DNA of 64,000 bases from Amycolatopsis alkalitolerans. Its GTDB lineage: Bacteria > Actinomycetota > Actinomycetes > Mycobacteriales > Pseudonocardiaceae. Made by a program: the position numbers and the translations under genes. Below are positions 3,297-35,029 of the stretch, piece after piece. Within the stretch, counting starts at the first letter, position 1, and every line of letters starts with the position of its first letter. The stretch lies in NCBI RefSeq assembly GCF_006152065.1, contig NZ_VDFW01000013.1, positions 62,001-126,000 of the forward strand, in the 5' to 3' direction. A model generated the notes under the pieces. The model was given only the letters and a program-made list of their open reading frames with translations. It ran no database searches and was not told where the DNA came from.

Positions 3297-6026
<2,730 letters not shown>

Positions 6027-11681: not shown

Positions 11682-11686
11682 GATTA

Positions 11687-11692
11687 CTTATA
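11687..11692 (-). promoter_or_regulatory. -10 element of the lysozyme-like gene
   Basis: Read on the minus strand, TGCTATAAG forms an extended -10 hexamer (TATAAG) ending 5 bases before the GTG at 11681. There is no Shine-Dalgarno sequence in between, so a leaderless transcript is likely. Confidence 0.5.
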
Positions 11693-11706
11693 GCAAGGAA
11701 GGCCGG

Positions 11707-12411: not shown

Positions 12412-12421
12412 GCGCTTCAGC

Positions 12422-13633
12422 CTAGTGGATAGGTGGCTCAGCCAGCCGCCCGCGCAGGAAGGCCCGCTCCGCCGCGTTGTCCGTACGGGCGATGGCTTCT
12501 TCGTACGCTTCGGCGGCCTCGGTCTCGCGGCCGAGCCTCCGCAGCAGATCGGCCCGAATCGCGTGGAACAGGTGATAGTGCCCGAGATCCAGGCCCTCGA
12601 CGAGGCGTAGGGCCGCGGCGGGCCCGTCGACCTCCGCGACCGCGACCGCGCGGTTGAGCGCCACCACCGGCGTGGGGCTCACGGTGAGGAGGTGGTCGTA
12701 CAGCGCCACGATCTGCGGCCACTCGGTCTCGGCCGCGGACGGCGCGTCGCCGTGCACGGCGTTGATGGCCGCCTGGATCTGGTACGGCCCGGGCCGCCCG
12801 CGCCGCAGGCACCGCCGCACGAGCCCCTGCCCTTCGCTGATGAGTTCGCGATCCCACCGCGCGCGATCCTGCTCGGCCAGCGGGATCAGCTCACCGGCCG
12901 GACCGGTGCGGGCGCCGCGCCGTGACTCGGTCAGCAGCATCAGCGCGAGCAGGCCGAGCACCTCGGGTTCGTCGGGCATCAACTCGGCGAGTACCCGGCC
13001 CAGCCGGATCGCCTCGGCGCACAGGTCCTCCCGCACGAGCCGGCCGCCCGAACTCGCGGTGTGGCCCTCGGTGAAGATCAGGTACACGACCGCGAGCACG
13101 GCGCGCAGCCGGTCGGGCAGGTCGGCTTCGCGCGGCACCCGGTAGGGGATGCGAGCCTGCCGGATCTTGGCCTTGGCCCGCACGATCCGTTGCGCCATGG
13201 TGGTTTCCGGTACCAGGAACGCCCGCGCGATCTCGGCGGTGGTGAGCCCGCCGAGCAGCCGCAGGGTCAGCGCGACGCGCGCGGCCGGGGCGAGCGCCGG
13301 ATGGCAGCAGGTGAAGATGAGACGCAGCCGTTCGTCACGCACCGGGCCCTCCGGTATCTCGTCGTCGCCCGCGTGCAGCAGCGCGGCCCGGGCGTGGCGG
13401 TCCTCCCTGGACGCCTCACGCCGCAGCCGGTCGATGGTGCGGTTGCGCGCGGTCGTGATGATCCAGCCGGCCGGGCTCGGCGGAAGCCCGGCCGACGGCC
13501 AGTTCGCGAGCGCGGCGGCGAAGGCGTCCTGGACCGCCTCTTCGGCGAGGTCGATGTCGCCGAAGACGCGGACCAGGACCGAGACCGCGCGCCCGTACTC
13601 GGCCCGGAAGATCTCCTCGATCCGGGTCTTCAC
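12422..13633 (-). CDS. ECF RNA polymerase sigma factor with C-terminal extension (ECF42-like, DUF6596)
   Basis: The 403-residue protein has sigma regions 2 and 4 in its first 170 residues ([37 protein letters not shown]). A long C-terminal domain of about 230 residues with TPR-like helices follows (DUF6596), typical of the ECF42 group. ECF42 genes sit beside YciI/DGPF-domain genes, as here, where the partner lies immediately upstream and overlaps by 4 bases. In this group the extension, rather than an anti-sigma factor, is thought to control activity. The start is the GTG at 13633 overlapping the partner's TGA (GTGA); an upstream ATG frame inside the partner is rejected. Confidence 0.85.
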
Positions 13634-19774: not shown

Positions 19775-20248
19775 ATGACCAGTACAGCACAGATCTGGCG
19801 CGAGATCGAAAGATGCTCCTTCGCGGTCGTCAGCCATGTCACCCCCGACGGCGCGCCGCGTTCGAGCGGGGTCAGCTACGCCGCCGAAGGCGGGCGGCTC
19901 TACAGCATCGTGGCAGGTGACGGGTGGAAGGCGCGGCACCTCGCGCTCGACGGCCGGGTCGCGGTGACCGTGCCCGTTCACCGTGGCGGCATCCTCGCGC
20001 TGCTGATGCCGATCCCGCCCGCGACGATCAGTTTCCACGGCACCGCGACCGTGCGCACCGACGGCCATGTCCCGCCCAAGCTGGAATCCTTGCTGCGCAA
20101 CGTGAAGCACGGGGCGAGCGCGATCATCGAGATCGAGCCGTCCGGACGCTTCCTGACCTACGGCATCGGCGTGCCGCTGCTGAAGATGCGGGACGCGGCC
20201 GCGGCCAGGGGCGTCGCGCCGATCGGTCAGAGGTCGTTGCCCGCGTAG
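19775..20248 (+). CDS. Pyridoxamine-5'-phosphate-oxidase-like flavin/F420-binding protein
   Basis: The 157-residue protein has a split-barrel fold: IWREIERCSFAVVSHVTPDG, the GWKARHLALDGRVAVTVP strand region and a C-terminal ITYG-type strand (GRFLTYGIG). Relatives bind FMN or F420, and several, including M. tuberculosis Rv0080 next to the Rv0081-Rv0087 locus, are DevR-regulated. Here too it sits beside that type of operon and downstream of DevR-like boxes. The start at 19775 is preferred; an in-frame ATG at 19748 would add MSVAWANRG. Its stop overlaps the convergent large-subunit gene by 22 bases. Confidence 0.75.
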   Translation: MTSTAQIWREIERCSFAVVSHVTPDGAPRSSGVSYAAEGGRLYSIVAGDGWKARHLALDGRVAVTVPVHRGGILALLMPIPPATISFHGTATVRTDGHVPPKLESLLRNVKHGASAIIEIEPSGRFLTYGIGVPLLKMRDAAAARGVAPIGQRSLPA

Positions 20249-21681
20249 GACAGGTTGAAGCTCTTGTTGGTCAGCGGGAAGTCCGGCACGATCGTGTCGG
20301 CGAGCGCGACCGGCAGCGCCGGCCAGTTGAAGAAGCTCGGATCGACCACCTTCACCCGGGTCAGCACCCCGTCCCGGTCGAGTTCGACGCGGTGCACGAT
20401 CGTGCCGCGCCAGCCTTCGGCGATGCCCACCCCCGACCGCGCCTGTCCGGCGGGCCCGGTGTAAGCGGACAGGTCGCGGAGCCCTGCGGACAGTTCGGTG
20501 ATCCGCGTGATCGAGTCCGCGATCTCCTCGGCACGGACGCTGAACCGGGACAGCACGTCGCCGTTCGTCGTGCCGTGCCGTACGCGCGCGCCCGGGACCG
20601 CGGGGAACGGGTGATCGGCGCGCGCGTCGGTGACGAGGCCGCTGGCGCGCGCGACATAGCCGAGCGTGCCGAGGTCCGAAGCCTGCTCGCGGGTCAGCAC
20701 GGCGGTGCCGGTGAACCGGTCGACGACGACGCTGTTGGCGAGCGCGAGCGCGACCACCTCGGCGATGTCGTCACCGAGATCGCTCAGCACGTCCGGATCC
20801 GGCGCGTGGTCGAGGCGCGCCCCGCCGGGCCGGATGCAGCCTCGCAGCAGCCGGTCCCCGCTGACCTGCTCGTTCAGGCGCAGCAACCGTTCCCGGATGC
20901 GCTGGGCGTGGTTGTTGAGGATGCCGTACCCGACGTCATTGCACAGCGCGCCGAGATCGGTCACGTGGTTGTAGATGCGCTCCAGCTCCAGCAGGATCGC
21001 CCGGATCCGCTGCGCGTCCTCGGGCACGGCGATCCACTGTGCCTCCTCCACGGCGAGGCAGAACGCGAGCGAGTGGCCGACCGCGGTGTCCCCGCTGATG
21101 CGTTCGGACAGTGCGAGCGCGTCCTCGGGGCGGCGGCCTTCGAAGAGCCGTTCGAGTCCTTTGTGGACGAACCAGAGGCGGGCCTTGAGGTTGAGGATCG
21201 TCTCGCCGACCACGGAGAACCGGAAATGCCCCGGTTCGATCATGCCGGCGTGCACCGGGCCGACCGGGATCTCGTACACGCCGTCGCCTTCGACGGTGCG
21301 GAACGGGTAGGGGCCGTCGACGTCGCCGAACTCCGGCGGGCTCCCGGCGTCGGCGCGCATCGGGTACCAGCCCCGGGGCCAGTGGAAATGCCGGACCAGG
21401 CGGCGCGGCAGCGGATGATGTTCGGGCACGATGCCGAACAGGTCGCGCATCTCGCGTTCGAACCGCCCGGCGGGGAACGAGATGCCCGCGAGCGTCGGCA
21501 CGGCCGGGTGGCCGCGGTCGAGGCGGACGTGCAACTCGGTGCGGCGGTCGGGCGCGGCGGCGGTGAACAGGTACACCGCGCGCAAGGCGTCGCCGTCGTC
21601 GTGCCCGGCGATCAGGGCGACGCGGAAACCCTCGTCCAGCAACGCTTTCGCTTCGATGGGCAGTTCGGCGGGGGAGATCAT
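20227..21681 (-). CDS. Hydrogenase-related complex large subunit (HycE/NuoCD-like, Ehr type) lacking Ni-Fe ligands
   Basis: This 484-residue fusion of NuoC-like (about 1-130) and NuoD/HycE-like (about 140-484) domains corresponds to M. tuberculosis Rv0087. In true group 4 hydrogenases two CxxC pairs bind Ni-Fe. Here the first pair position reads S-G-D-T (ALSERISGDTAVGHSLAFC) and the second reads T-N-K-S (DFPLTNKSFNLSYAG). Only three scattered cysteines exist, so Ni-Fe chemistry is excluded by sequence. It is the last gene of the operon, translationally coupled (ATGA at 21678-21681) to the membrane subunit. It probably forms the peripheral arm of a proton/Na+-pumping or redox-driven membrane complex; the substrate is unknown. 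Confidence 0.85.
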   Translation of the reverse strand: MISPAELPIEAKALLDEGFRVALIAGHDDGDALRAVYLFTAAAPDRRTELHVRLDRGHPAVPTLAGISFPAGRFEREMRDLFGIVPEHHPLPRRLVRHFHWPRGWYPMRADAGSPPEFGDVDGPYPFRTVEGDGVYEIPVGPVHAGMIEPGHFRFSVVGETILNLKARLWFVHKGLERLFEGRRPEDALALSERISGDTAVGHSLAFCLAVEEAQWIAVPEDAQRIRAILLELERIYNHVTDLGALCNDVGYGILNNHAQRIRERLLRLNEQVSGDRLLRGCIRPGGARLDHAPDPDVLSDLGDDIAEVVALALANSVVVDRFTGTAVLTREQASDLGTLGYVARASGLVTDARADHPFPAVPGARVRHGTTNGDVLSRFSVRAEEIADSITRITELSAGLRDLSAYTGPAGQARSGVGIAEGWRGTIVHRVELDRDGVLTRVKVVDPSFFNWPALPVALADTIVPDFPLTNKSFNLSYAGNDL

Positions 21682-23156
21682 GGTGCCGTCCTCGAGATCG
21701 TGCCGGCGGCGAGGTGCAGGAGGGTGCCGAGCGGTCCGGCGGTGACGCCGAGCGCGGCACACGCGGCGAGCGCGCCGACCAGGCTGATCGTGGCGCTGAC
21801 CGGCAGCCGCCGCGGGGCGGTCGCGGCGCCGGGCCCCTCGGGCGCGGCACCGAACAGCATCCGGCTGGTGTGGTTGACCAGCGCGCCGGCGATCACGACC
21901 AGCAGCACGAGCGCGACGGCGGTCGCCCAGCCGAGACCGCCCGCGAACCCGGCGCGCACGATGCCCAGTTCGCTCGCGAACAGGCTGAACGGGGGGAGCC
22001 CGAGCAGTGCGAGCACGCCCAGCCCGACACTGCCCGCGAGCACCGGCGCGCGGGAGGCCAGCGCCCGTACGCCCGCGATCGCGCTGGTTCCGGTGGTCTG
22101 CAGGATCCGGCCCGCGCCGAGGAAGAGCACGCTCTTCGCGAGCCCGTGACCGAGTACGTGCAGCAGCAGCGCGGCGAGCGCGAGCGGGCTGCCGATCGCC
22201 GCGCCCAGCGCGATGAGCCCGAGATGTTCGATGCTGGAGTAGGCGAACATGCGCTTGTAATCCCGTTGCGCCAGCAGAAGCGAAGCGGCGAGCGTGAGCG
22301 ACGCCAGCGCCAGCACGGTCAGCACCGCACGCAGGAACCCCGGGCCGAGCGCGCCGTCGGCGATCACCTTGACCCGCAGGATCGCGTAGAACGCGACCGA
22401 CAGCAGCACCCCGGACATCAGCGCCGACACCGGTGCGGGTGCCTGCGAATGCGCGTCGGGGAGCCACGCGTGCAGCGGGGCGAGCCCGGCTTTCGCGCCG
22501 AAACCCAGCACCAGCAACACGACCGCGATCCTCGTGACGCCGGGGTCGAGCGCCTGGGCGTGCGCGGCGAGCGTGGCCAGATCCAGGCTCATACCGGCGT
22601 GGGCCGAGGCGTAGCTGAGCACGAGGGTGCCCAGCAGTGCGAGCGCGATCCCGGTCGAGCAGATCACGACGTACTTCCACGCGGCCTCGATCGCGGTGCG
22701 GGTACGGCGCTGGCCGACGAGCAGCGCGGTGAAGATCGTGGTGGCCTCGACCGCCACCCACACCACGCCGAGGTTCGCCGCGAGCACCGCGAGCGCCATC
22801 GCGGCCAGGAACAGTTGCACGAGCAGGCTGTGCCGGGCGGCGGTGCGGGAGGACGCCCGCTTCGCCGCCATCTCGGCGCGCAGGTACGCCGGGGTCGCGG
22901 TCGCCGCGACGAGCGCGACCGCGCCGATCACGATGAGCATGAACGCCGAAAGCGCGTCGGTCCGCAGCAGCCCGCCGACCGCGACCTGCGGTCCATGGCG
23001 GGTCACGTCGACGGCCGTGGTGATCGCGGCGGCGAGGACGAGGCCCGCGCTGATCGTGCCGGTCCACGCGGTCGCGCGCCGCCAGCCGAGCCCGGCGTGC
23101 ACGATCGCGCCGAGCAGGGGCACGGCCACCGGGGCGAGCAGGAGGATCGTGGTCAT
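21678..23156 (-). CDS. Antiporter-like membrane subunit (HycQ/HyfF, NuoN/M-like)
   Basis: This 492-residue polytopic protein of about 13-14 helices belongs to the Mrp/complex I proton-translocating family. It has the conserved lysine in FGAKAGLAPLHAWLPDAHSQAPAP and a glutamate in VWVAVEATTIF. It matches the Rv0086 position in the M. tuberculosis locus. It would conduct protons or Na+ across the membrane in the Ehr complex. The start at 23156 overlaps the previous stop (ATGA), and its own stop overlaps the large-subunit start, so it is tightly coupled. Confidence 0.85.
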   Translation of the reverse strand: MTTILLLAPVAVPLLGAIVHAGLGWRRATAWTGTISAGLVLAAAITTAVDVTRHGPQVAVGGLLRTDALSAFMLIVIGAVALVAATATPAYLRAEMAAKRASSRTAARHSLLVQLFLAAMALAVLAANLGVVWVAVEATTIFTALLVGQRRTRTAIEAAWKYVVICSTGIALALLGTLVLSYASAHAGMSLDLATLAAHAQALDPGVTRIAVVLLVLGFGAKAGLAPLHAWLPDAHSQAPAPVSALMSGVLLSVAFYAILRVKVIADGALGPGFLRAVLTVLALASLTLAASLLLAQRDYKRMFAYSSIEHLGLIALGAAIGSPLALAALLLHVLGHGLAKSVLFLGAGRILQTTGTSAIAGVRALASRAPVLAGSVGLGVLALLGLPPFSLFASELGIVRAGFAGGLGWATAVALVLLVVIAGALVNHTSRMLFGAAPEGPGAATAPRRLPVSATISLVGALAACAALGVTAGPLGTLLHLAAGTISRTAP

Positions 23157-23818
23157 CAGTCGCGCAGCTCCCGCAGTTCGTCGAGATCGGTACCGCCGAA
23201 GGCCTCCCGCATGCGCACCGCGAGGATCTGCAGGACGAGCACGACGAGCAGCAGATCCAGGGAGACGCCGAGCTCGACGACCAGGCCGACGCTCGTCACG
23301 GTGAGGAAGCCGACCGCGGTGATCCCGTTGTCCAGCAACAGGAACCCGGCCAGCTGGGACAGCGCGCGCCGCCGGGTGACGAGCACGAACAGCCCGATCA
23401 GCACGACCGTGAGCCCGACCGGGATCGCCTCCGTCGTCGCCGAAGGCGCGAGCTGGACCAGCGGCTGGGAGACCGCGTACGCCAGCAGGGTCAGCACGGC
23501 GGCGGTCAGCAGCGAGGAGGCGACGTTGACCAGCGGCCTGCTGTCGCGCCGAGCCGCGCCCGCCCGCGCCAGCGCGCGGCGCAACAGCCAGGGCAGGACG
23601 CCCACGCGCAGCACGAGCACGCCCGCCGCGATGATGCCCAGTTCGGCGTCGCGATGGTGGACGGCGATCACCGCGACGATGGCGGTCAACGCCAGGCCCT
23701 GCAAGGCGAACAGGCCGATGACGACGGACAGTTCGCGGCGCCACAGGACAAGCACCGCGGACAGCAGCAGGGCACCGCAGAAGAGGTCGAGCAGTTGTAC
23801 GTAGAGTGTTTCGTTCAT
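23156..23818 (-). CDS. HyfE/HycP-like membrane subunit
   Basis: This 220-residue protein has about seven helices. It resembles HyfE and NuoK-like small membrane subunits, with buried acidic residues (QLLDLFCGALLL, GVLVLRVGVLPWLL, LLLDNGITAVGF). It occupies the Rv0085 position. It joins the antiporter-like subunits in the membrane arm. The ATG at 23818 has a clear GGAGGTGGCG site, 10 bases after the stop of the HycD-like gene, and its TGA overlaps the next start. Confidence 0.8.
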   Translation of the reverse strand: MNETLYVQLLDLFCGALLLSAVLVLWRRELSVVIGLFALQGLALTAIVAVIAVHHRDAELGIIAAGVLVLRVGVLPWLLRRALARAGAARRDSRPLVNVASSLLTAAVLTLLAYAVSQPLVQLAPSATTEAIPVGLTVVLIGLFVLVTRRRALSQLAGFLLLDNGITAVGFLTVTSVGLVVELGVSLDLLLVVLVLQILAVRMREAFGGTDLDELRELRD

Positions 23819-23828
23819 CGCCACCTCC

Positions 23829-24770
23829 TCAGGCCAGGAAGAACGAGGACGCGACGGCCAGCAGGGACAGCAGGAACGAACCGGCGAGCAACTCCGGCAC
23901 GCGGAACAGCCGCAGCTTCGCCAGGAACACTTCGCCGACCGCGAGCGCGACACCGAGCAGGCCTACCTTCAGCACGATCGCGCCGGTCCCGATCAGCAGG
24001 GACAGCGGATCGGGCGAGGTCGCGACGCCCCAGGGCAGGAACAGGTTCGCCAGCAGGCCGAGGAACACGCTCAACCGCATCGCGGAGGCCAGTTCGACGA
24101 GCGCCAGGTCCGGCCCGGCGTATTCGAGGATCATCGCCTCGTGCACCATCGTCAGTTCGAGGTGGGTCGACGGGTTGTCCACCGGCAGCCGCCCGGTCTC
24201 GGCGATGATCACCACGACCAGCGCGACCGCGGCCAGCAGGCTGGCGGGGGAGATCACCCGCGACGGATCATGCACGGTCGAGGAGACGATCGAGGACAGG
24301 TTCGTCGATCCGACCCGCACCGAGAGCGCGAAGATCGCCACCAGCAGGGTCGGCTCGACGAGCGCCACGATCGTCATCTCGCGGCTCGCGCCCATCCCGC
24401 CGAACGCGGTACCGGTGTCCAGGCCCGCGAGCGCCAGCGCGACGGTGCCCAGGGTCAGCAGCGCCACGACGGCGAACAGGTCGGCCGCCGGCGGGATGGC
24501 CGATCCGGTGGTGACGAACGGGACGACGACCGCCACCACGAGCGAGGTGGCCACCAGCACCAGCGGGGCGATCCGGAACACCTCGCTCGTGCCGCGCGGG
24601 CGCACGGTTTCCTTGTGCAGGAACTGTTTCCGCAGATCCCGCCACGGCTGGGCGATCCCCGCGCCCGCGCGGCCCTCCAGCCGCGCGCGCACCTGCCGCA
24701 TGAGCCCGGTCAGCAGCGGTGCCCCGCCGATCACCAGCAGCGCCTGCACGGCGCCGGCCACCGCGTTCAC
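23829..24770 (-). CDS. HycD/NuoH-like membrane subunit
   Basis: This is a 313-residue complex I ND1-type protein of about eight helices that links the peripheral arm to the membrane arm. It has the conserved loop AGAGIAQPWRDLRKQFLHKE and acidic quinone-site-like residues (VDNPSTHLELTMVHEAMILEY). It corresponds to Rv0084. It starts with GTG at 24770 overlapping the HyfB-like stop (GTGA). The presence of this subunit supports a real membrane complex rather than a soluble enzyme. Confidence 0.85.
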   Translation of the reverse strand: MNAVAGAVQALLVIGGAPLLTGLMRQVRARLEGRAGAGIAQPWRDLRKQFLHKETVRPRGTSEVFRIAPLVLVATSLVVAVVVPFVTTGSAIPPAADLFAVVALLTLGTVALALAGLDTGTAFGGMGASREMTIVALVEPTLLVAIFALSVRVGSTNLSSIVSSTVHDPSRVISPASLLAAVALVVVIIAETGRLPVDNPSTHLELTMVHEAMILEYAGPDLALVELASAMRLSVFLGLLANLFLPWGVATSPDPLSLLIGTGAIVLKVGLLGVALAVGEVFLAKLRLFRVPELLAGSFLLSLLAVASSFFLA

Positions 24771-26749
24771 CGCGTCACCGCCAGGGCGATGAGCGCGGCG
24801 ACCACCGTGTAGAAGCCGTAACCGAGGTACCGGTGCACGCTGCCGTTCGCGAGCTTGCGGCCCGCACGGCCCCACGCGGCGACGGCGGCGAGCACGGGCG
24901 CGTAGAACCGGCGCTCGATCCGGTCCGGCACCCCGCGCCGGTAGGCGACGGCCGCGACGAGATACGCGGACTCTTCGTGATGGGTCACGTTCACATCGGT
25001 CTCCGGCCGTACGACGTCGTCGAAAACCCGTTGCAGTGGTTCGGCGAACGACGTCGCGGTGTACTCCATGCGCGGCGTGAGCGGGCCCGCGCCGCAGTCC
25101 CACAGCCGCGCGTCACGACGGGCACGGCGGAGGCTCAGTGCCCGCAGCACGCCGACGATCAACACCGTCCCCGCGAGCAGCGCGAGCGTCAGCAGCAGGG
25201 GCGAAAGAGAGCCCGCGACCGCGGTCAGGCGGACGGTCGCCGCCTCGGTCGTCACCGCGTCGCCGAAGCCCGCGGCCTTCGCGACGGCGGGCAGGACCAG
25301 CGTCGGAAGCAGCGCGAGGACAGCGGAAACGGCGGCGGCGAGGCCCATCCCGGTGAGCATGCTCGGCGGGCTTTCGTGGGCGGCCGCCGCGCCGCGCGGC
25401 CGGGCGAGGAACCCGACACCGAACGCCTTGACGAAGGTCGCCACGGCGAGGCCCGCGGTGAGCGCCACAGCCGCGACCGACAGCGGCATCGCGATCGCCG
25501 TCGCGACCCCGGAGGCGGGCAGACCGTGCACGAGTGCCTGCAACAGCAGCCATTCGGACACAAACGCGGTGCCCGGCGGCAGCGCGGACGCGGCCAGCGC
25601 CCCGGCGCCGAACAGCGCGGTCGTCACCGGCATGGTGCGCCGCAGCCCGCCGAGGGCGTCGAGATCGCGCGTCCCGGTCGCGTGCAGTACCGAACCGGCG
25701 GACAGGAACAGCAGTGTCTTGAACGCGGCGTGCCCGAGCACGTGCAGCAGCGCCGCCGACAGCGCGAGCGCGGCGAGATCCCGGTGCCCGGTCGAGGCGA
25801 ACAGCCCGGCCGCGCCGGTGCCGATCAGCACCAGGCCCATGTTCTCGGTGGTGGAGCTGCCCAGGAGCCGTTTGAGGTCGGTGCTCATCGCGGCCTGCAG
25901 GATCCCGTAGACGGCGGAGACCGCCCCGAGCGCGAGCACCGCGAGCCACCACCAGCGGGGCCCGCCGCCGAGCAGGTCGAATCCGAACCGGACGATCCCG
26001 TACACGCCGAGGTTGACCATCGCGGCGGACATCAGCGCCGACACGTGGCTGGGCGCCTCCGGATGCGCGCGCGGCAGCCAGGCGTGCAGCGGCAGGATCC
26101 CGGCCTTCGAGGAGAACCCGGTCAGCGTCAGCAGGAACACGAGATCGCGGGTAACGGAGGACAGGTGCGCTTCTCTGAGCGCGGCAAAGGAGTCCCCGCC
26201 CGCGTGGCCGGCGAACACGAGCAGGCCCGCCAGGATCGTGACGAACCCGAGATGCGTCATCACCGCGTACCAGCGGCCCGCGGAGGCGACCTGGCGGCGC
26301 CGCCGGTGCTCGGTGACCACGAGCAGCAGCGAGGTGAGCGCCATCAGCTCCCAGCACACCAGGAAGGTCCCGATCCCGGCGGCGACCGGTACCAGCAGCA
26401 TGGCGACCACGAACAGCGGCAGGATCGCTTGCGGAGGACGGGAATCGTGGCGCGTGTAGCCGATCGCGTATATCCCGGTGGCGATCGCGACCCCACCGGT
26501 GACGGCGAGGAACAGCCCGCCGAGCGGATCCACGGAGACGGCGAACCCGGACAGCGGCAGCAGCCCGGACCACGTCGCCGAAAACGCCTCCCCGGACAGC
26601 GCGGCGACACCCGCGACGATGGCGGCGACGCCCGTCAGCGCGGTCCCCGCGCCGCTCACCACAGAGCGCAGCGAGCGCGGAATGACCACAGTGGACAGTG
26701 CGGTAAGCGCGCCCGCGACCACCGCGGTGAGCAGGCTCGCGGCGATCAC
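24767..26749 (-). CDS. HyfB/NuoL-like antiporter subunit
   Basis: This is a 660-residue polytopic protein with about 16 helices. It has the lysine-containing GFSSKAGILPLHAWLPRAHP signature, a second charged site (GHAAFKTLLFLSAG) and a hydrophilic C-terminal region before the last helix (CGAGPLTPRMEYTATSFAEP). It occupies the Rv0083 position. It is the largest ion-translocating subunit of the putative Ehr complex. GTG start at 26749 overlaps the NuoB-like stop. Confidence 0.85.
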   Translation of the reverse strand: MIAASLLTAVVAGALTALSTVVIPRSLRSVVSGAGTALTGVAAIVAGVAALSGEAFSATWSGLLPLSGFAVSVDPLGGLFLAVTGGVAIATGIYAIGYTRHDSRPPQAILPLFVVAMLLVPVAAGIGTFLVCWELMALTSLLLVVTEHRRRRQVASAGRWYAVMTHLGFVTILAGLLVFAGHAGGDSFAALREAHLSSVTRDLVFLLTLTGFSSKAGILPLHAWLPRAHPEAPSHVSALMSAAMVNLGVYGIVRFGFDLLGGGPRWWWLAVLALGAVSAVYGILQAAMSTDLKRLLGSSTTENMGLVLIGTGAAGLFASTGHRDLAALALSAALLHVLGHAAFKTLLFLSAGSVLHATGTRDLDALGGLRRTMPVTTALFGAGALAASALPPGTAFVSEWLLLQALVHGLPASGVATAIAMPLSVAAVALTAGLAVATFVKAFGVGFLARPRGAAAAHESPPSMLTGMGLAAAVSAVLALLPTLVLPAVAKAAGFGDAVTTEAATVRLTAVAGSLSPLLLTLALLAGTVLIVGVLRALSLRRARRDARLWDCGAGPLTPRMEYTATSFAEPLQRVFDDVVRPETDVNVTHHEESAYLVAAVAYRRGVPDRIERRFYAPVLAAVAAWGRAGRKLANGSVHRYLGYGFYTVVAALIALAVTR

Positions 26750-27219
26750 CGGCCCGTCAGCTTTCGCAGCCCCTCGACGATCGCCTCCGGCCGGGGCGGG
26801 CAGCCGGGGATCTCCAGATCCACCGGTACGACGTCGGAAACGGCGCCGACCACTCCGTAGGCCCCGGCGAACACCCCGCAGTTACGCGCGCAGTCACCGA
26901 CCGCCACGACGGCCTTCGGTCCCGGCACGGCGTCGTGCGTGCGCCGCAACGGCTCGGCCATGTTGCGTGTCACCGCGCCGGTCACCAGCAGCGCGTCGGC
27001 GTGCCGCGGCGACGCGACGAGCCGCGCCCCGTACCGCTCGGCGTCGTACACGGGGCCGAACGCCGACGCGATCTCCACCTCGCACCCGTTGCAGGAACCG
27101 GCATCGACGTGGCGTACCTGCACCGAGCCGCCGAAGGGGAACCGCTCCGCGGCCGGCCGCGGCGGCGCGGGCTCGGCGACCCGCCCGGTCCGGAGGATCT
27201 TGCGCCACAGGCTCGCCAT
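26746..27219 (-). CDS. NuoB/HycG-like iron-sulfur subunit
   Basis: The 157-residue protein belongs to the complex I 20-kDa/hydrogenase small-subunit family. It retains all four cubane ligands: CNGCEVE near residues 43-46, GDCARNC and PGCPPRPE. A [4Fe-4S] cluster adjacent to the large subunit is therefore expected, even though the large subunit has lost its Ni-Fe site. This implies electron transfer to another acceptor, for example a quinone. It corresponds to Rv0082. Its ATG overlaps the last base of the ArsR stop (TAATG), so the regulator is part of the transcript. Confidence 0.85.
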   Translation of the reverse strand: MASLWRKILRTGRVAEPAPPRPAAERFPFGGSVQVRHVDAGSCNGCEVEIASAFGPVYDAERYGARLVASPRHADALLVTGAVTRNMAEPLRRTHDAVPGPKAVVAVGDCARNCGVFAGAYGVVGAVSDVVPVDLEIPGCPPRPEAIVEGLRKLTGR

Positions 27220-27566
27220 TACTCGCCCCGCTCCGTGTTCGTGGGCACAGCCAGGTTCGCGAGCAGTTCGACCTGCCCGGTCAGCACCGTGCCGAGGATC
27301 CGCCGCGCGACCGCCAGCAGTTCGGCGATCGACGGATCGGTGATCGAGTAGAAGACCGCCGAGCCCTCCTTGCGGGACACGACCAGCCCGGCCCGCCGCA
27401 GCACCGCGAGCTGCTGGGACAGGTTCGTCGCCTCGATCCCGACCTTGGGCAGCAGTTCGGCGACGGCGTGCTCGCGTGTGCTGAGCAGTTCGAGCACCCG
27501 GATGCGCGCCGGATGGCCGAGTGTCTTGAAGAACTCCGCCTTCAGCTGATACAGGGGCTTGGTCAC
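27219..27566 (-). CDS. ArsR-family repressor heading the Ehr operon (Rv0081-like)
   Basis: This is a 115-residue winged-helix protein. KTLGHPARIRVLELLSTREHAVAELL and the recognition region ATNLSQQLAVLRRAGLVV identify the ArsR/SmtB family. No cysteine is present, so metal sensing by thiolates is unlikely. M. tuberculosis Rv0081, which heads the matching locus, is a known DosR-regulated autorepressor. A perfect 13-base palindrome 12-24 bases upstream of the GTG start supports autoregulation here. The same site lies between this gene and the divergent LLM gene. Confidence 0.85.
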   Translation of the reverse strand: MTKPLYQLKAEFFKTLGHPARIRVLELLSTREHAVAELLPKVGIEATNLSQQLAVLRRAGLVVSRKEGSAVFYSITDPSIAELLAVARRILGTVLTGQVELLANLAVPTNTERGE

Positions 27567-27577
27567 TTGAAGAATTT

Positions 27578-27590
27578 ATCAACTGTTGAT
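27578..27590. promoter_or_regulatory. Operator-like palindrome ATCAAC-T-GTTGAT
   Basis: Perfect 6-base arms around one base, in an AT-rich stretch between the ArsR gene (start 27566, minus) and the LLM oxidoreductase gene (start 27646, plus). It is the likely binding site of the ArsR protein, controlling one or both genes. Confidence 0.6.
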
Positions 27591-29151: not shown

Positions 29152-29223
29152 ATGGTCGCCACCGGGGCAGGCGGATCAAGCTGATCCCAGCCCGATCCGT
29201 CGATCGCCGGGGAGTTGAGCGCC

Positions 29224-30483
29224 ATGCCGGAGGAGGCCGGCCCGCGGGTTCGTGAGCTCTTCGCCCGCCGCGACGCGCCGGTCCTCGACCTGGCCGCGCA
29301 GGCGGGCGAGGTGGCGCTCGCGTGCCACGCCATGGCGGTCCGGTTCCACCGCGGCGGCAAGCTCGTGGTGTTCGGCAACGGCGGCCAGAGCACCGACGCG
29401 CAGCACGTGGCCGTCGAGTTCGTCCATCCGGCGATCGTCGGGAAACGGGCGCTGCCAGCGGTTTCGCTCAGCGCCGACATGGCGACGCTCACCGGGGTCG
29501 CCGGCCGCGCGGGGCTGGACGAGGTGTTCGCGCACCAGATCCGGATCCTCGGCGAACCGGCGGACATCGCACTCGGGATCTCGGCGGACGGCGAGTGCGG
29601 CAACGTCCTGCGCGGCCTGACCGCGGCGGACCGGCTTGGGATGCTCACGGTCGCCCTCACCGGCGGCGACGGTGGCCGGATCGCGCGCGCACCGCAGGCG
29701 CACCACGTGCTGACCGCGCGGTCGGCCGACCCGCGCGTGGTGAAGGAAGTGCACGTCACGACCTACCACGTGCTGTGGGAACTGGTGCACGTCTTCCTCG
29801 ACCAACCGGAGCTGATCATGAACGCACGCCCGCACGACGCGAGTGAGCTGGCTTCGCTGTATCCGTTCCTCTACACCAGGGCAGGCGATCTGGACGCCGT
29901 GCTGGCCGGGGTCCGGCAGTCCACAGTGGACAAGACCGGCGAGATCGCGGCCTTGCGGGCCCAGGTGCTCGAGGCCGACGGCGCGCGGATCGAGGAGTGC
30001 GCGCGGCGGATGGCTGACGCGTTCTCCGGCGGCGGCCGGCTGTTCGCCTTCGGCAACGGCGGCAGTTCGACCGACGCGCAGGACCTGGCGGGCCTGTTCC
30101 TCGAACCCGGCGGCGACGCTCGGCCGCTGCCCGCCTTCGGGCTGACCAACGACATCGCCGTGGTGACCGCCCTGTCCAACGACATCGGGTTCGACGTCGT
30201 GTTCGCCCGCCAGATCGGCGCGTTCGGCCGCGCCGGCGACATCGCGGTCGGGCTGTCCACGAGCGGCAACTCGGAGAACCTGCTCCGCGGCTTCGACGAG
30301 GCAGCCCGGCGCGGCATGCTCACCATCGGGATCGCGGGCTACGACGGCGGGAAGATGGCCGAACTCGGCTCGATCGACTACCTGTTCGTCGTGCCCTCGC
30401 CGTCGGTGCACCGCATCCAGGAGGCACAGACGACGATCTACCACGCGCTGTGGGAGCTCACCGTGGACGGGGTCGGCCGGTGA
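29224..30483 (+). CDS. Tandem SIS-domain protein of the hyp cluster (phosphoheptose-isomerase-like)
   Basis: The 419-residue protein contains two GmhA-like SIS domains. The first (about 30-190) has the phosphosugar motif VVFGNGGQSTDAQHVAVEF; the second (about 245-410) has FAFGNGGSSTDAQDLAGLF. Single SIS/GmhA genes are common inside actinobacterial hydrogenase maturation operons, but their role is not known. Here two copies are fused. The stop overlaps the hypD start (TGATG), so it is cotranscribed with hypD and hypE. An alternative TTG start at 29215 adds three residues. Confidence 0.8.
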   Translation: MPEEAGPRVRELFARRDAPVLDLAAQAGEVALACHAMAVRFHRGGKLVVFGNGGQSTDAQHVAVEFVHPAIVGKRALPAVSLSADMATLTGVAGRAGLDEVFAHQIRILGEPADIALGISADGECGNVLRGLTAADRLGMLTVALTGGDGGRIARAPQAHHVLTARSADPRVVKEVHVTTYHVLWELVHVFLDQPELIMNARPHDASELASLYPFLYTRAGDLDAVLAGVRQSTVDKTGEIAALRAQVLEADGARIEECARRMADAFSGGGRLFAFGNGGSSTDAQDLAGLFLEPGGDARPLPAFGLTNDIAVVTALSNDIGFDVVFARQIGAFGRAGDIAVGLSTSGNSENLLRGFDEAARRGMLTIGIAGYDGGKMAELGSIDYLFVVPSPSVHRIQEAQTTIYHALWELTVDGVGR

Positions 30484-31610
30484 TGCGCTTCGTCGACGAG
30501 TTCCGGGACGCCGAGCAGGCACGGGCGCTTTCGGAGAAGATCGCCAAGCTGTGCGAGCCGGGACGTGAGTACCGGTTCATGGAGGTGTGCGGCGGGCACA
30601 CCCACGCGATCTACAAGCACGGGCTGGAGGACTACCTGCCGCCCGAGATCACCCTGGTGCACGGACCGGGCTGCCCGGTGTGCGTGATCCCGATGGGCCG
30701 GGTGGACGACGCGATCCACGTCGCGCGGCAGCCGGATGTGCTGATGACCTCGTTCGGGGACATGATGCGCGTGCCCGGCAGCGGCGGGAGCTTCTTCGAC
30801 GCCAATGCCGAGGGCACCGACATCCGCATGGTGTACTCGCCGCTCGACGCGCTGAAGGTCGCGCGGCGGCATCCGGACCGGCAGGTCGTGTTCATGGCGA
30901 TCGGGTTCGAGACCACGGCGCCGTCCACCGCGATGACCGTGCTGCGGGCCGCGCGGGAGGGCATCGGGAACTTCTCGGTCTTCTGCAACCACGTGATGAT
31001 CATCCCGGCGATCAAGGCCATCCTGGACTCGCCGGACCTCCGGCTGGACGGGTTCATCGGACCGGGACACGTGTCGACGGTGATCGGCTGCCGCCCGTAC
31101 GAGTTCATCGCCCGCGAGCACGGCAAACCCGTGGTGGTGTCCGGATTCGAGCCGCTGGACCTGCTGCAGTCGATCTACCTGCTGCTCCGGCAGCTGTCGC
31201 GGGGGCGCTCGGCGGTGGAGAACCAGTACACCCGCGTGGTGCCGTGGGACGGGAACCTGGCGGCGCTGCGCGCGATCGGCGAGGTGATGCGGCCGCGGCC
31301 GTACTTCGAATGGCGCGGTCTCGGGTTCATCTCGCATTCCGCGATGCGCGTGCGGGACGAGTTCGCCGCGTTCGACGCCGAGCGGATCTTCGGGGTGCCG
31401 GGTGTGCGGGTCGCGGACCCGAAGGCCTGCCAGTGCGGTGAGGTGCTCAAGGGAGTGCTGAAACCGTGGGAGTGCAAGGTGTTCGGCACCGCGTGCACCC
31501 CGGAGACCCCGATCGGCACGTGCATGGTCTCCTCGGAAGGGGCCTGCGCGGCCTACTACAACTTCGGCCGGTTCACGCGGAGCCGGATGCGGGAGGCGAG
31601 CCGGGCATGA
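30483..31610 (+). CDS. hypD: Hydrogenase maturation factor HypD
   Basis: This is a 375-residue iron-sulfur scaffold on which the Fe(CN)2CO part of the Ni-Fe site is built together with HypC. All signature motifs are present: the CGGHTH loop, GPGCPVCVIP, the GFETTAPST strand and the C-terminal [4Fe-4S] cysteines (ACQCGEVLKG, KPWECKVFGTACTPE). Normally HypC is encoded directly upstream; here that place is taken by the SIS protein. The ATG at 30483 overlaps the preceding TGA; the stop overlaps hypE (ATGA). Confidence 0.95.
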   Translation: MRFVDEFRDAEQARALSEKIAKLCEPGREYRFMEVCGGHTHAIYKHGLEDYLPPEITLVHGPGCPVCVIPMGRVDDAIHVARQPDVLMTSFGDMMRVPGSGGSFFDANAEGTDIRMVYSPLDALKVARRHPDRQVVFMAIGFETTAPSTAMTVLRAAREGIGNFSVFCNHVMIIPAIKAILDSPDLRLDGFIGPGHVSTVIGCRPYEFIAREHGKPVVVSGFEPLDLLQSIYLLLRQLSRGRSAVENQYTRVVPWDGNLAALRAIGEVMRPRPYFEWRGLGFISHSAMRVRDEFAAFDAERIFGVPGVRVADPKACQCGEVLKGVLKPWECKVFGTACTPETPIGTCMVSSEGACAAYYNFGRFTRSRMREASRA

Positions 31611-32668
31611 CGGAAGAGCAGGTGCTGGCGCGGATCGAACGGGCGCGGCGCCGCAAGGCCCGGGTCCGGGAGGAGCGGATCACCCTGTCGCACGGATCCG
31701 GCGGCAGGGCGATGCACACGCTGATCGAGGCGGTCTTCCTCGACGCCTTCCGCAACCCGCTCCTGGAACCGCTGGACGACGCGGCGTCCCTGCGGATCGG
31801 GGAGACGGGCCTGGCGCTGACGACGGACTCCTTCGTCGTGTCGCCGCTGTTCTTCCCGGGCGGGGACATCGGCGATCTCGCGGTGAACGGGACGGTGAAC
31901 GATCTCGCCGTCTCCGGTGCCCGGCCGCTGTACCTGACCGCGGGCTTCATCCTCGAAGAGGGCTTTCCGGTGGCGGACCTGATGCGGATCGTCGAGTCGA
32001 TGCGTGCCGCGGCCGAGCGCGCCGGGGTGCAGATCGTCACCGGGGACACGAAGGTCGTGCAGCGCGGCAAGGCCGACGGCTGCTACGTCAACACCGCCGG
32101 GGTGGGGCTGCTCGAGCACCACGGGCTCGGCATCGCACACGCCCGTCCCGGCGACGCGGTGCTGGTGTCGGGCCCGATCGGGGAGCACGGGATCACCGTC
32201 CTGCTCGCGCGCGGTGAGCTGGACATCGAGGCGGACCTCGAATCGGACACCGCGCCGGTGCACGAACTCGTGCGCGGGCTCCTGGCGGTGCCGGGCGTGC
32301 GGGGGCTGCGGGACGCGACACGCGGTGGCGTCGCGACGATCCTGAACGAGGTGGCCAAGGCCGCCGGCGTCGCGGTGATCGTCGACGAGGACGCGGTCCC
32401 GGTGCGTGAAGAGGTGCGGGGTGCTTCGGAACTGCTGGGCATCGACCCGCTGTACGTGGCGTGTGAAGGCCGGATCGTCGCGATCGCCGACGGCGCGAGC
32501 GCCGGCGAAGCCCTGGCCGCCATGCGGGCGCATCCGCTCGGCGCCGGCGCCGCGATCATCGGGCGCATCGGCGACGATCCGCCGGGCCTCGTCCTGCTGA
32601 ACACCGCTTTCGGCGGGACCCGGATCGTGGACCTGCTCGCGGGGGACCCGTTGCCCCGGATCTGCTGA
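31607..32668 (+). CDS. hypE: Hydrogenase maturation factor HypE
   Basis: This 353-residue AIR-synthase-like protein dehydrates the carbamoyl group delivered by HypF to a thiocyanate on its C-terminal cysteine. It has the glycine-rich start LSHGSGGRAMHTLI, the metal/ATP site TDSFVVSPLFFPGGDIGDLA and the invariant terminus PRIC. The intact terminal Cys indicates a functional protein. It converges on hypF with no spacer: the two stop codons adjoin at 32668/32669. Confidence 0.95.
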   Translation: MTEEQVLARIERARRRKARVREERITLSHGSGGRAMHTLIEAVFLDAFRNPLLEPLDDAASLRIGETGLALTTDSFVVSPLFFPGGDIGDLAVNGTVNDLAVSGARPLYLTAGFILEEGFPVADLMRIVESMRAAAERAGVQIVTGDTKVVQRGKADGCYVNTAGVGLLEHHGLGIAHARPGDAVLVSGPIGEHGITVLLARGELDIEADLESDTAPVHELVRGLLAVPGVRGLRDATRGGVATILNEVAKAAGVAVIVDEDAVPVREEVRGASELLGIDPLYVACEGRIVAIADGASAGEALAAMRAHPLGAGAAIIGRIGDDPPGLVLLNTAFGGTRIVDLLAGDPLPRIC

Positions 32669-34909
32669 TCAGCGGTCACGCGCCGCGGCGACCACGGCCT
32701 GCCCGAGGCTGATCCCGCCGTCGTTGGCGGGTACCCGGGAATGCGTCAGCACCCGGAACCCGGCCCGCTCCAGCTTGGCCACGGCGCGCTCGAGCAGCAG
32801 CAGGTTCTGGAACACGCCGCCGGACAGGGCGACCGTGGCGACCCCGGTCCGCTCTCGCAGTACGGCACACGCGCGGGCGATCGCCGCCGCCACGCCGTTG
32901 TGGAAGCGCCCGGCGATCACCGGCACCGGCACCCCGGCCCGCAGGTCGTCCACAATGGACAAGACGAGATCGGTGCCCGCGATGGTCAGCGGCGTGCCGA
33001 CGATCGTGGCCGGGTAGGTCCCGTGCTCGGCCGGATCGGCCAGCTGTTCCAGTTCGATCGCCGCCTGGCCCTCGTAGGTGATCACGTCGCGGGTGCCGAG
33101 TATCGCCGCCGCCGCGTCGAACAGGCGGCCCGCGCTCGAAGTCGGCGGCGCGTTGACGGAGCGGTGCGCCAGCGAAACCACGCTGGTCCAGCGGGATTCG
33201 TTGCGCCGCACCACGTCGAGGCCGGGCACGCGTGCACCGCAGGCGGCGTCGAGGTAGGCGGCCGCCATCCGCCAGGGCTGCTTGATCGCCGCCGTCCCGC
33301 CCGGCATCGGCACCGGCGCGAGATGTCCCACCCTGGTGAACTCCGCGCGGCCGGCGAGCAGGAACTCGCCACCCCAGATCGTGCCGTCCGTCCCGTACCC
33401 GAGCCCGTCGAACGCCACGCCGAGCACGGGGCCGTCCTCGCCGTTGTCGGCCAGGCACGACGCGATATGCGCGTGATGGTGCTGCACCCCGGCCAGTTCG
33501 ACGCCGTCCCGTTCGAGGGCGTACTTCGTGGACAGGTACTCCGGGTGCAGATCGTGCGCGACGAGCGCGGGGTGCACGTCGAACAGCCGCTGGAAATGCT
33601 CGATGCCCTCGGTGAACGACCGCAGCGTCTCGTAGTTCTCCAGATCCCCGATATGGTGCGACAGGAACGCGCGCCGGTCCTTGGCGAGGCAGAAGGTGTT
33701 CTTCAGTTCCGCCCCGCAGGCCAGGATGTGCCGGGGGAACTCGCCGCGCACCGGCTCGGGCACGAACCCGCGTGAGCGCCGCATCAGCTGCCGGCGGGCG
33801 CGGAAGGGGCGGACCACGGAGTCGTCGGTGCGGATGTGGATCGCGCGGTCGTGCACCAGGAACGCGTCGGCGATCCGCCCCAGCCGCGCCCGCACCTCGT
33901 CGTCCCGGTACGCGATCGGCTCGTCGGAGACGTTGCCGCTGGTCAGCACGATCGGGCGGGAGATGCCGGCCAGCAGGAGATGGTGCAGCGGAGTGAAGGG
34001 CAGCATCACCCCCAGCCGCCGGTTGCCCGGCGCGACCGAATCCGCGACGTCCGCGCCCGGACGCCGGGGCAGCAGTACGATCGGCCGCCGCCGGTCGGTC
34101 AGCAGCCGTTCCGCGAGTGCGTCCACTTCGCACAGTGCGGCCGCCGCCGCGAGATCGGGCACCATGACCGCGAAAGGCTTGTCCTCGCGGTGTTTCCGGG
34201 ATCGCAGGCGCCGGGCGGCCGCCTCGTTCGTCGCGTCCACCGCCAGGTGGTACCCGCCGAGCCCCTTGACCGCGACCACCTGCCCGGCGCGCAACATGTC
34301 CACAGTGGACGATATCGGCTCCCCGGCGGCGCCGAGCAGGCGCAGTGTGGGGCCGCACGCGGGGCAGCACACCGGCTGCGCGTGGAACCGGCGGTCGGCC
34401 GGGTCGTGGTACTCGCGCGCGCAGTCCTCGCACATCGGGAACGGCGCCATCGTCGTCGACGGCCGGTCGTAGGGCACCGACTCGACGATGGTGAACCGCG
34501 GCCCGCAGTTCGTGCAGTTGACGAACGGGTACCGGAAGCGCCGGTCGCCGGGGTCACGCAGTTCACGCAGGCAGTCCTCGCACGTCGCGCTGTCCGCGGA
34601 GACCAGCGTCCGCGCGCCGTCACCGGGCAGGCTCGGCACGATCCGGAACCCGGTCTCGCCGAGCCGGGTGATCTCCCGCGCGCTCACCCGCTCGACGACG
34701 GCGAGCCGGGGCGCCTGCTCGCGCATCGCGACCAGGAAGTCCGCGACCGCCTGCCGCCCGCCCTCGATCTCGGCGAAAACGCCGGCGGCGTCGTTGCCGA
34801 CATGCCCGGCGAGCCCGAACCGGCCGGCGAGCGTCTGCACGAAGGGCCGGAACCCGACCCCCTGCACGACCCCGTCGACGCGGACGGCGACACGGACGCT
34901 GTCACTCAC
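32669..34909 (-). CDS. hypF: Carbamoyltransferase HypF
   Basis: The 746-residue enzyme makes carbamoyl-AMP and transfers the carbamoyl group to HypE. Domains in order are acylphosphatase (about 1-90, VQGVGFRPFVQTLA), two zinc fingers (CEDCLRELRDPGDRRFRYP, NCTNCGPRF; CEDCAREYHDP, CCPACGPT), a YrdC-like ATP domain (KGLGGYHLAVDATNEAAARRL) and the C-terminal Kae1-like domain (HHHAHIASCLADNG). It starts with GTG at 34909. A DevR-like box lies 17-30 bases upstream. The gene faces hypE tail to tail. Confidence 0.95.
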   Translation of the reverse strand: MSDSVRVAVRVDGVVQGVGFRPFVQTLAGRFGLAGHVGNDAAGVFAEIEGGRQAVADFLVAMREQAPRLAVVERVSAREITRLGETGFRIVPSLPGDGARTLVSADSATCEDCLRELRDPGDRRFRYPFVNCTNCGPRFTIVESVPYDRPSTTMAPFPMCEDCAREYHDPADRRFHAQPVCCPACGPTLRLLGAAGEPISSTVDMLRAGQVVAVKGLGGYHLAVDATNEAAARRLRSRKHREDKPFAVMVPDLAAAAALCEVDALAERLLTDRRRPIVLLPRRPGADVADSVAPGNRRLGVMLPFTPLHHLLLAGISRPIVLTSGNVSDEPIAYRDDEVRARLGRIADAFLVHDRAIHIRTDDSVVRPFRARRQLMRRSRGFVPEPVRGEFPRHILACGAELKNTFCLAKDRRAFLSHHIGDLENYETLRSFTEGIEHFQRLFDVHPALVAHDLHPEYLSTKYALERDGVELAGVQHHHAHIASCLADNGEDGPVLGVAFDGLGYGTDGTIWGGEFLLAGRAEFTRVGHLAPVPMPGGTAAIKQPWRMAAAYLDAACGARVPGLDVVRRNESRWTSVVSLAHRSVNAPPTSSAGRLFDAAAAILGTRDVITYEGQAAIELEQLADPAEHGTYPATIVGTPLTIAGTDLVLSIVDDLRAGVPVPVIAGRFHNGVAAAIARACAVLRERTGVATVALSGGVFQNLLLLERAVAKLERAGFRVLTHSRVPANDGGISLGQAVVAAARDR

Positions 34910-34925
34910 ATCCCGAGTCTGCCCC

Positions 34926-34939
34926 GGGCCGTTCGTCCC
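34926..34939. promoter_or_regulatory. DevR/DosR-like box upstream of hypF
   Basis: GGGCCGTTCGTCCC is a near-palindrome of the same GGGnCnTTnGnCCC type as the boxes before the SIS-hyp and PFOR operons. It lies 17 bases before the hypF GTG, in the space shared with the divergent IclR gene. Confidence 0.45.
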
Positions 34940-35029
34940 GTCGAGCGACGGTGTTTGGGCAGGGGACCAGGAGCGTCTTGCGGCGAGGACATCGCGTCGG
35001 CGACCCTGGTGAGCTGGAAAGGGGACGCG

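What the first reader, a model, noticed from the sequence alone, without database searches (positions are those of the whole stretch)
20227..27566. Hydrogenase-related membrane complex whose large subunit has lost all Ni-Fe ligands
Seven overlapping genes (ArsR, NuoB-like, HyfB-like, HycD-like, HyfE-like, HycQ-like, HycE-like) match the order of M. tuberculosis Rv0081-Rv0087. In the large subunit the two CxxC pairs that hold Ni-Fe read S-G-D-T and T-N-K-S, conservative Cys to Ser/Thr changes, while the [4Fe-4S] site of the NuoB-like subunit is intact. So electrons can enter or leave the cluster, but hydrogen chemistry is not possible. The electron donor or acceptor and the pumped ion are unknown, making this an understudied bioenergetic complex.
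Basis: partly seen in the sequence, partly recalled or inferred. Interest (0 to 1): 0.72.

Follow-up and report, generated by a model that had tools for sequence, protein, structure and literature searches.

The report
Hydrogenase-like ion pump lacking nickel-iron site
This bacterium (an actinomycete) carries a six-part membrane machine built like a hydrogen-making enzyme, but the spot that should hold the nickel-iron catalyst has been rebuilt with other amino acids, so it most likely runs on some other fuel; close relatives occur in many actinomycetes, and one of them is described in print as a hydrogenase.

Summary
The large subunit has no Ni-Fe ligand. None of 105 (first motif) or 103 (second) close homologues, window excluded, has Cys there; the replacements are nearly invariant. 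Of 27 genomes in an order sample that carry the large subunit, 11 have no HypD and HypE only under cut-off, so no Ni-Fe cofactor is needed. The pocket keeps the hydrogenase proton relay, lacks complex I's quinone His/Tyr, and turns a canopy Asp reported as strictly conserved into Asn. Cluster and most pump residues are intact. It is an Ehr (energy-converting hydrogenase-related) complex, a kind in print with unknown function. Best reading: an ion-translocating oxidoreductase with a non-H2, proton-coupled substrate, perhaps menaquinone. In passing: a sister clade with four Cys, 7 of 9 genomes without HypD, and a collapsed second copy in this genome.

The parts
27219..27566 (-). ArsR-family regulator, closest to Rv0081
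   Evidence: Pfam HTH_5; best PDB match 6jmi Rv0081
27567..27582 (-). probable ArsR operator TTGATAAATTCTTCAA, directly before the ArsR start
   Evidence: 16-mers with 2 mismatches or fewer to a consensus before ArsR in 37 of 68 related loci against 5 of 1020 random pieces (the consensus was drawn from these same loci); with 1 mismatch or fewer only 2 sites in the 6.78-Mb genome, each before an ArsR of this kind
26746..27219 (-). NuoB/HyfI-like small subunit, one [4Fe-4S] site C43, C46, C110, C140
   Evidence: Pfam Oxidored_q6; best PDB matches MbhJ and HycG; Cys 73 of 73
24767..26749 (-). HyfB-like antiporter-type membrane subunit
   Evidence: Pfam Proton_antipo_M; 34% to E. coli HyfB; E134, K215, H229, K344, E399
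23829..24770 (-). HycD/HyfC/NuoH-like membrane anchor
   Evidence: Pfam NADHdh; 35% to E. coli HycD; E139, E191, E205, E211 78 of 78, E131 71 of 78
23156..23818 (-). HyfE-like membrane subunit
   Evidence: NCBIfam hydrogenase 4 membrane subunit, 89.5 bits, under its cut-off of 136; 29% to E. coli HyfE
21678..23156 (-). HyfF/HycQ-like antiporter-type membrane subunit
   Evidence: Pfam Proton_antipo_M; 40% to E. coli HyfF; E137, K222, K341 80 of 80, E396 78 of 80
20227..21681 (-). HycE-like (NuoC-NuoD type) large subunit without Ni-Fe ligands
   Evidence: Pfam Complex1_30kDa, Complex1_49kDa, NiFeSe_Hases; best PDB match HycE 7z0s_E
21085..21096 (-). codons 196-199 SGDT, equivalent of E. coli CGIC
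   Evidence: alignment with HycE and HyfG and 105 homologues
   Evidence: alignment with HycE and HyfG and 103 homologues

Best explanation
A six-subunit, redox-driven ion pump of the Ehr kind, not a hydrogenase. Shown by sequence: a single cysteine-ligated cluster site in the NuoB-like subunit; a large subunit whose former Ni-Fe pocket has none of the four Cys but keeps the proton-relay residues E149, H239, R345, E386 and R425; a HycD-like anchor with most channel glutamates; two antiporter-type subunits with their Glu, Lys and His. Inferred: electrons pass between a soluble low-potential carrier (ferredoxin-like; no carrier subunit is in the operon) and an organic substrate, perhaps menaquinone, bound in the polar pocket made by S196, D198, T199, N476 and S478; the proton-coupled reaction drives proton (or sodium) movement through HycD, HyfB and HyfF. 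Expression is probably controlled by the ArsR at the operator before it.
For: No Cys at any ligand column in 105/103 close homologues, with replacements about as conserved as structural residues. Of 27 carriers in the order sample 11 have no HypD and HypE only under cut-off; the large subunits of these 11 read STSG (9) or ATSG (2) at the four positions. Large subunit ends at the residue after which E. coli HycE carries a 32-residue tail. Relay residues kept, in 108 rows in which the window protein stands twice: H239 107 of 107 letters, E386 107 of 107, R425 105 of 105, R345 106 of 107, E149 93 of 108. Cluster Cys 73 of 73 and the Glu/Lys set kept in nearly all. Same order and strand in 71 of the 72 named loci (of 80) in which all six genes were found. 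A 2-oxoacid:ferredoxin oxidoreductase lies in the same window at 51.7-56.2 kb, a possible source of reduced ferredoxin.
Against: No biochemistry. No electron-carrier subunit in the operon, and no obvious one among recurrent neighbours (neighbours judged by eye). Complex I's quinone His and Tyr are absent. E149 is Gly in 15 of 106 homologues. Some FHL channel residues differ: HycD Tyr102, Arg108, Glu199 and Glu201 are A, T, S and H here; HycC Lys239 is Asn or Ser. Carriers have HypD more often than non-carriers (16 of 27 against 68 of 321, Fisher p 5e-5, not corrected for kinship), so some link to H2 metabolism cannot be ruled out. The predicted model has low confidence exactly at the pocket.
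Confidence: 0.7

Rival explanations
1. A quinone reductase that works like complex I: reduced ferredoxin gives electrons to the cluster, menaquinone is reduced in the former Ni-Fe pocket, protons are pumped. This is the best explanation with the substrate fixed.
For: The same pocket became a quinone site in complex I (PMC9474812, section 10 read); relay residues H239, R345, E386 and R425 are shared with NuoD (one of 20 NuoD rows has Lys for R425).
Against: The quinone head-group His and Tyr positions are Ile148 (105 of 106, one Val) and Gly197 (105 of 105) in the homologues; the canopy Asp, reported as strictly conserved in complex I too, is Asn in 101 of 103.
Confidence: 0.35
2. A sulfane-sulfur reductase like MBS, in which the cluster itself reduces polysulfide.
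For: MBS is a hydrogenase-like complex that also lacks the quinone His and Tyr (PMC7684303 passages).
Against: MBS has a shortened cluster loop with three ligating Cys; here the CxxC loop aligns without gap to MbhJ and all four Cys are kept, 73 of 73. MBS keeps two of the four large-subunit Cys and lacks the proton path; here no ligand Cys is kept and the path is kept.
Confidence: 0.06
3. A real [NiFe]-hydrogenase or formate hydrogenlyase with unusual ligands, as the M. tuberculosis locus is labelled.
For: Closest solved relative is E. coli HycE; hypD, hypE and hypF lie beside it in this genome; carriers have HypD more often; this genome has two formate dehydrogenase alpha genes over cut-off, on other contigs.
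Against: No ligand Cys; 11 of 27 carriers have no HypD; HypD and HypE not found in the fetched flanks of 80 named loci; no HycB/HycF-type subunit in the operon; formate dehydrogenase alpha over cut-off in only 7 of 31 carriers, by one model; this genome has a separate hydrogenase with CGIC and CISC on contig C8.
Confidence: 0.02
4. A complex that has lost redox function and serves as an ion antiporter or scaffold, or is on its way out.
For: A second copy in the same genome has collapsed; only 5 of 19 genomes of the genus carry it.
Against: 93 invariant positions in up to 108 large-subunit rows and 73 of 73 cluster Cys; 71 of 72 complete loci keep order and strand.
Confidence: 0.12

Closest known systems
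[quoted passage not shown] passages)
   Same: Group-4-like large subunit without the CxxC ligands, related to complex I, antiporter-like membrane subunits, function unknown
   Different: This clade has a six-gene set with an ArsR and the signature SGD[TS] ... NxSYAGNDL; no formate dehydrogenase or NuoE/F-like gene in the window operon
M. tuberculosis Rv0081-Rv0087 locus (PMC6901956, PMC3087520, PMC5484546; passages)
   Same: Closest solved relative of the ArsR; names hycD, hycP, hycQ, hycE in the same order
   Different: In print as putative [NiFe]-hydrogenase or formate hydrogenlyase; its relatives here lack the ligands. Rv0087 itself was not examined
E. coli hydrogenase-4 / formate hydrogenlyase (hyf, hyc)
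   Same: HyfB, HyfC/HycD, HyfE, HyfF, HyfG/HycE and HyfI/HycG counterparts, 29-49% identity
   Different: No gene of its own for HyfA, HyfD or HyfH; no Ni-Fe ligands; no C-terminal tail
Respiratory complex I (NuoB, NuoCD, NuoH)
   Same: Homologous core and proton relay
   Different: CxxC instead of adjacent Cys at the cluster; no quinone His/Tyr; no NADH arm in the operon
MBS of Pyrococcus furiosus (PMC7684303, passages)
   Same: Hydrogenase-like complex with changed pocket
   Different: Cluster here has four Cys and the proton relay is kept; no large-subunit ligand Cys is kept

Membership tests
Ehr (energy-converting hydrogenase-related complex) | large subunit homologous to group 4 hydrogenases | tested here: met
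   HycE best in PDB by sequence and by fold; tree
Ehr (energy-converting hydrogenase-related complex) | lacks the CxxC motifs that bind Ni-Fe | tested here: met
   window S196, T199, S478, G481; 0 Cys in 105 and 103 homologues
Ehr (energy-converting hydrogenase-related complex) | antiporter-like membrane subunits and complex I-like anchor | tested here: met
[NiFe]-hydrogenase group 4 / formate hydrogenlyase | four Cys ligands | tested here: not met
   S196, T199, S478, G481
[NiFe]-hydrogenase group 4 / formate hydrogenlyase | Hyp maturation present in carriers | tested here: not met
   HypD absent in 11 of 27 carriers of the order sample and in 15 of 42 over all carriers tried; present in this genome
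[NiFe]-hydrogenase group 4 / formate hydrogenlyase | ferredoxin-like HycB/HycF and formate dehydrogenase subunits | tested here: not met
   no operon protein matches HycB, HycF, HyfA or HyfH; formate dehydrogenase genes lie elsewhere in this genome
[NiFe]-hydrogenase group 4 / formate hydrogenlyase | protease-cleaved C-terminal tail | tested here: not met
   no residue after GNDL; E. coli HycE 32. Some true group 4 enzymes also lack a tail (recalled), so weak
Complex I (quinone reductase) | quinone head-group His and Tyr in NuoD | tested here: not met
   Ile148 and Gly197; positions taken from NuoCD motifs
Complex I (quinone reductase) | quinone reduction | not testable with these tools
   needs purified complex
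MBS sulfane-sulfur reductase | proximal cluster with three Cys and shortened loop | tested here: not met
   CxxC loop aligned without gap to MbhJ, four Cys in 73 of 73
M. tuberculosis Rv0081-Rv0087 type locus | Rv0081-like regulator with the six genes in this order | tested here: met
   names and order from a table in PMC6901956
M. tuberculosis Rv0081-Rv0087 type locus | ligand residues of Rv0087 itself | not tested

The most novel reading that the evidence does not exclude
One ArsR-linked six-subunit machine in Actinomycetota has replaced the Ni-Fe site in two different ways: in the window's clade by a cofactor-free polar pocket (S196, D198, T199, N476, S478), in a sister clade by a four-cysteine site that is not filled by the Hyp pathway (7 of 9 such genomes have no HypD). 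Both would be new active-site designs on the hydrogenase-4 frame; the first is carried by streptomycetes, amycolatopses and mycobacteria as an unrecognised respiratory pump.
Probability: 0.3. Interest if true: 0.75.

Novelty: new member of a known kind. Interest (0 to 1): 0.45.

Why it matters
Showing that relatives need no Ni-Fe cofactor undercuts that reading, and the list of invariant pocket residues makes the question of what it reduces or oxidises directly testable. Its pocket is neither that of hydrogenases, of complex I nor of MBS, so it would be a further step in how this superfamily changes substrate.

Tried and rejected
Hyp adjacency: hypD, hypE, hypF and a double SIS gene lie at 29.2-35.0 kb, but HypD, HypE, the SIS gene, the luciferase-like gene and the window's own PNPOx gene found no match (E 1e-6) in the fetched stretches of the 80 named loci, some of which are short (HypF was not among the queries). 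I take hyp to serve the C8 hydrogenase (inference). Conserved electron partner: clustering of called genes around 80 loci showed no obvious redox partner in 5 or more loci, judged by eye with a rough gene caller; recurrent neighbours were few (CBS-domain protein in 9 of 80, Rv0080-like PNPOx in 11 of 80; both families confirmed by Pfam for the queries). DosR-like box (pattern from recall): 16 matches in the window against 36 expected, no support. Structure: model mean pLDDT 73.8 but under 50 at 120-173 and 450-484, so it says nothing about the pocket. Formate dehydrogenase: over cut-off in 7 of 31 carriers with one model, TIGR01591, this genome among them with two genes; all 31 have at least weaker matches; another FDH-like family was not tried. 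Whether Cys loss is ancestral or derived: the tree splits the groups cleanly but the place of the four-Cys clade is weak (77/43). Literature: ten searches were run; none of the listings or passages seen states that Rv0087 lacks the ligands, but the 2011 paper on that locus is not held and the 2014 one was seen only in a reference list.
Full report
What is there. The window is part of contig C5 of a 6.78-Mb genome. On the minus strand, from 27566 down to 20227, lie an ArsR regulator and six subunit genes, five of the six junctions overlapping by 1-4 nt and one with a 10-nt gap. Pfam and NCBIfam name them as Oxidored_q6, two Proton_antipo_M proteins, NADHdh, a hydrogenase-4 membrane subunit (NCBIfam only, under its cut-off), and a protein with Complex1_30kDa, Complex1_49kDa and NiFeSe_Hases matches. 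Against E. coli, the counterparts are HyfI/HycG 49%, HyfB 34%, HycD 35% (HyfC 37%), HyfE 29%, HyfF 40% and HycE/HyfG 32-33% identity; HyfA, HyfD and HyfH have no gene of their own in the operon.

The ligand columns. Aligned with E. coli HycE and HyfG, the first pair CGIC is SGDT (196-199) and the second pair CYSC is SYAG (478-481). Homologues counted: 106 rows without the window, namely 74 of 80 named loci (6 dropped as identical to other rows) and 32 unnamed ones above 50% identity; no two rows are over 97% identical. Position 196 is S in 103 and A in 2 of 105; 199 is T 95, S 9, A 1 of 105; 478 is S 102 and T 1 of 103; 481 is G in 103 of 103; the missing rows have no letter there. G197, D198, Y479, N482, D483 and L484 never vary where a letter is present. 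This is a conserved new site, not decay.

Independent evidence against Ni-Fe. Making the cofactor needs six Hyp proteins (start of the abstract of PMC12134894, seen in the listing). In an order sample of 348 genomes, 27 have a large-subunit match at E 1e-30 or better, one of them (G169) only in part, and 84 have HypD; 11 of the 27 have none. Those 11 large subunits read STSG (9) or ATSG (2) at the four positions, and HypE is only under cut-off in the same 11 genomes. Over all 42 carriers tried, including distant ones, 15 lack HypD. Told against the reading: carriers have HypD more often than non-carriers, 16 of 27 against 68 of 321 (Fisher p 5e-5, kinship not corrected). E. coli HycE has a 32-residue tail and four actinobacterial relatives with CGIC and CYSC have 33-44; the window protein, its relatives with a complete end, and NuoD have none. 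Some true group 4 enzymes lack a tail too (recalled).

The pocket. PMC9474812 (sections 10 and 13 read) lists the catalytic residues of E. coli HycE. Mapped to the window: the beta1-beta2 loop Glu193 is E149 (91 of 106 homologues, Gly in 15), Asp192 is I148, His284 is H239, Arg395 is R345, Glu437 is E386, Arg478 is R425, Ser283 is N238. Asp529, which that paper calls strictly conserved, is N476 (101 of 103, Gly in 2). The quinone His and Tyr of NuoCD (taken by motif) fall on I148 and G197. So the pocket is not that of a hydrogenase, nor of complex I. MBS, the sulfane-sulfur reductase, lacks the proton path and has a three-Cys cluster (passages); here the path and four Cys (73 of 73) are kept.

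Cluster and pump. In the NuoB-like subunit C43, C46, C110 and C140 are kept in 73 of 73 sequences. In HycD E139, E191, E205 and E211 are kept in 78 of 78 and E131 in 71 of 78; E. coli Tyr102, Arg108, Glu199 and Glu201 are A, T, S and H in the window. HyfB keeps E134, K215 and K344 in 76 of 76 letters and E399 in 77 of 77 (78 rows); HycQ keeps E137, K222, K341 in 80 of 80 and E396 in 78. HycC Lys239 is N246 in HyfB and S253 in HycQ. E. coli HycC itself has Leu at the K215 position.

Distribution and order. In the genus, 5 of 19 genomes carry it, one cut by a contig end. All six genes were found in 72 of 80; 71 of these keep order and strand (L163 differs); ArsR is found in 67 of the 72, upstream on the same strand in 53. 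The tree of 60 rows puts the close clade together with full support (100/100) and separates it from the CGIC/CYSC group (100/99) and NuoD; the place of the four-Cys clade is weakly supported. The fold model is best matched by HycE of E. coli (TM 0.80 by query length) but is unreliable at the pocket.

Regulation. A 16-mer TTGATAAATTCTTCAA abuts the ArsR start. Versions with 2 or fewer mismatches to a consensus drawn from these loci occur before ArsR in 37 of 68 loci and in 5 of 1020 random pieces of the same loci; the consensus is circular in that sense. In the whole genome there are only two sites with 1 or fewer mismatches: this one and one on contig C34.

A collapsed second copy. At the C34 site lies an intact ArsR, 78% identical, followed by an 18-residue scrap of the NuoB gene and scraps of the last part of the HycE gene, beside a CBS-domain protein and a PNPOx-family protein. 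Described only.

A sister clade with four cysteines. Eight loci have all four Cys (six as CAAC, two as CGAC, then CYAC or, once, CYSC) and L079 has three. In their nine genomes HycE, HycQ, HycD and NuoB counterparts lie together on one strand in 9 of 9, HyfB in 8 (the ninth stretch is cut), HyfE in 7 at E 1e-5; NuoB comes last, not first; an ArsR-like gene lies beside the set in 8 of 9, on the same strand in 6. In 7 of the 9 genomes, 95-99% complete, no HypD is found, and HypE is only under cut-off in the same 7. A further Cys near the canopy Arg is present in 9 of 9. What these cysteines bind is open.

Literature. Ehr complexes are in print as group-4-like complexes without the CxxC motifs and with unknown function (passages). 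The M. tuberculosis locus is called a putative [NiFe]-hydrogenase or formate hydrogenlyase operon (passages). In ten searches I saw no statement that Rv0087 lacks the ligands, but the 2011 paper on the locus is not held and most subscription papers are missing from the library.

Verdict. The complex is a member of a known, poorly understood kind. Best reading: an ion-translocating, non-hydrogenase oxidoreductase with a proton-coupled organic substrate, perhaps menaquinone; the donor is unknown and may be ferredoxin.

Noticed in passing
L081, L083, L084, L085, L086, L088, L090, L091 and L079; regions L194-L202: Sister clade with the same kind of operon whose large subunit keeps four Cys (three in L079), yet 7 of 9 genomes have no HypD: possibly a Cys-bound site that is not Ni-Fe.
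   Followed up: partly
G000 contig C34 around 81302-81948 (L193 about 4000-4660): Second, collapsed copy of the operon in the same genome: intact ArsR and operator, scraps of the NuoB and HycE genes.
   Followed up: partly
window 29215-34966: Double SIS-domain gene, hypD, hypE (plus strand) and hypF (minus strand) beside the operon; SIS, HypD and HypE were not found near it in the 80 named loci.
   Followed up: yes
G000 contig C8, L007 about 8144-13343: A separate [NiFe]-hydrogenase with CGIC and CISC motifs, small subunit, NAD-binding subunit and maturation protease, resembling group 3b (group from recall).
   Followed up: partly
window 19775-20248: PNPOx-like gene, convergent with and overlapping the end of the large-subunit gene by 22 nt; another PNPOx-family gene stands near the collapsed copy.
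   Followed up: no
window 51729-56200: 2-oxoacid:ferredoxin oxidoreductase genes with a flavoprotein carrying ferredoxin-type domains: a possible source of reduced ferredoxin.
   Followed up: no
L028, L065, L075-L078, L080, L093, L094: Further Ehr-like large subunits in the phylum with other replacements at the ligand positions (EGIA, SGTD, SGTS, AATT types; L065 keeps one Cys).
   Followed up: no
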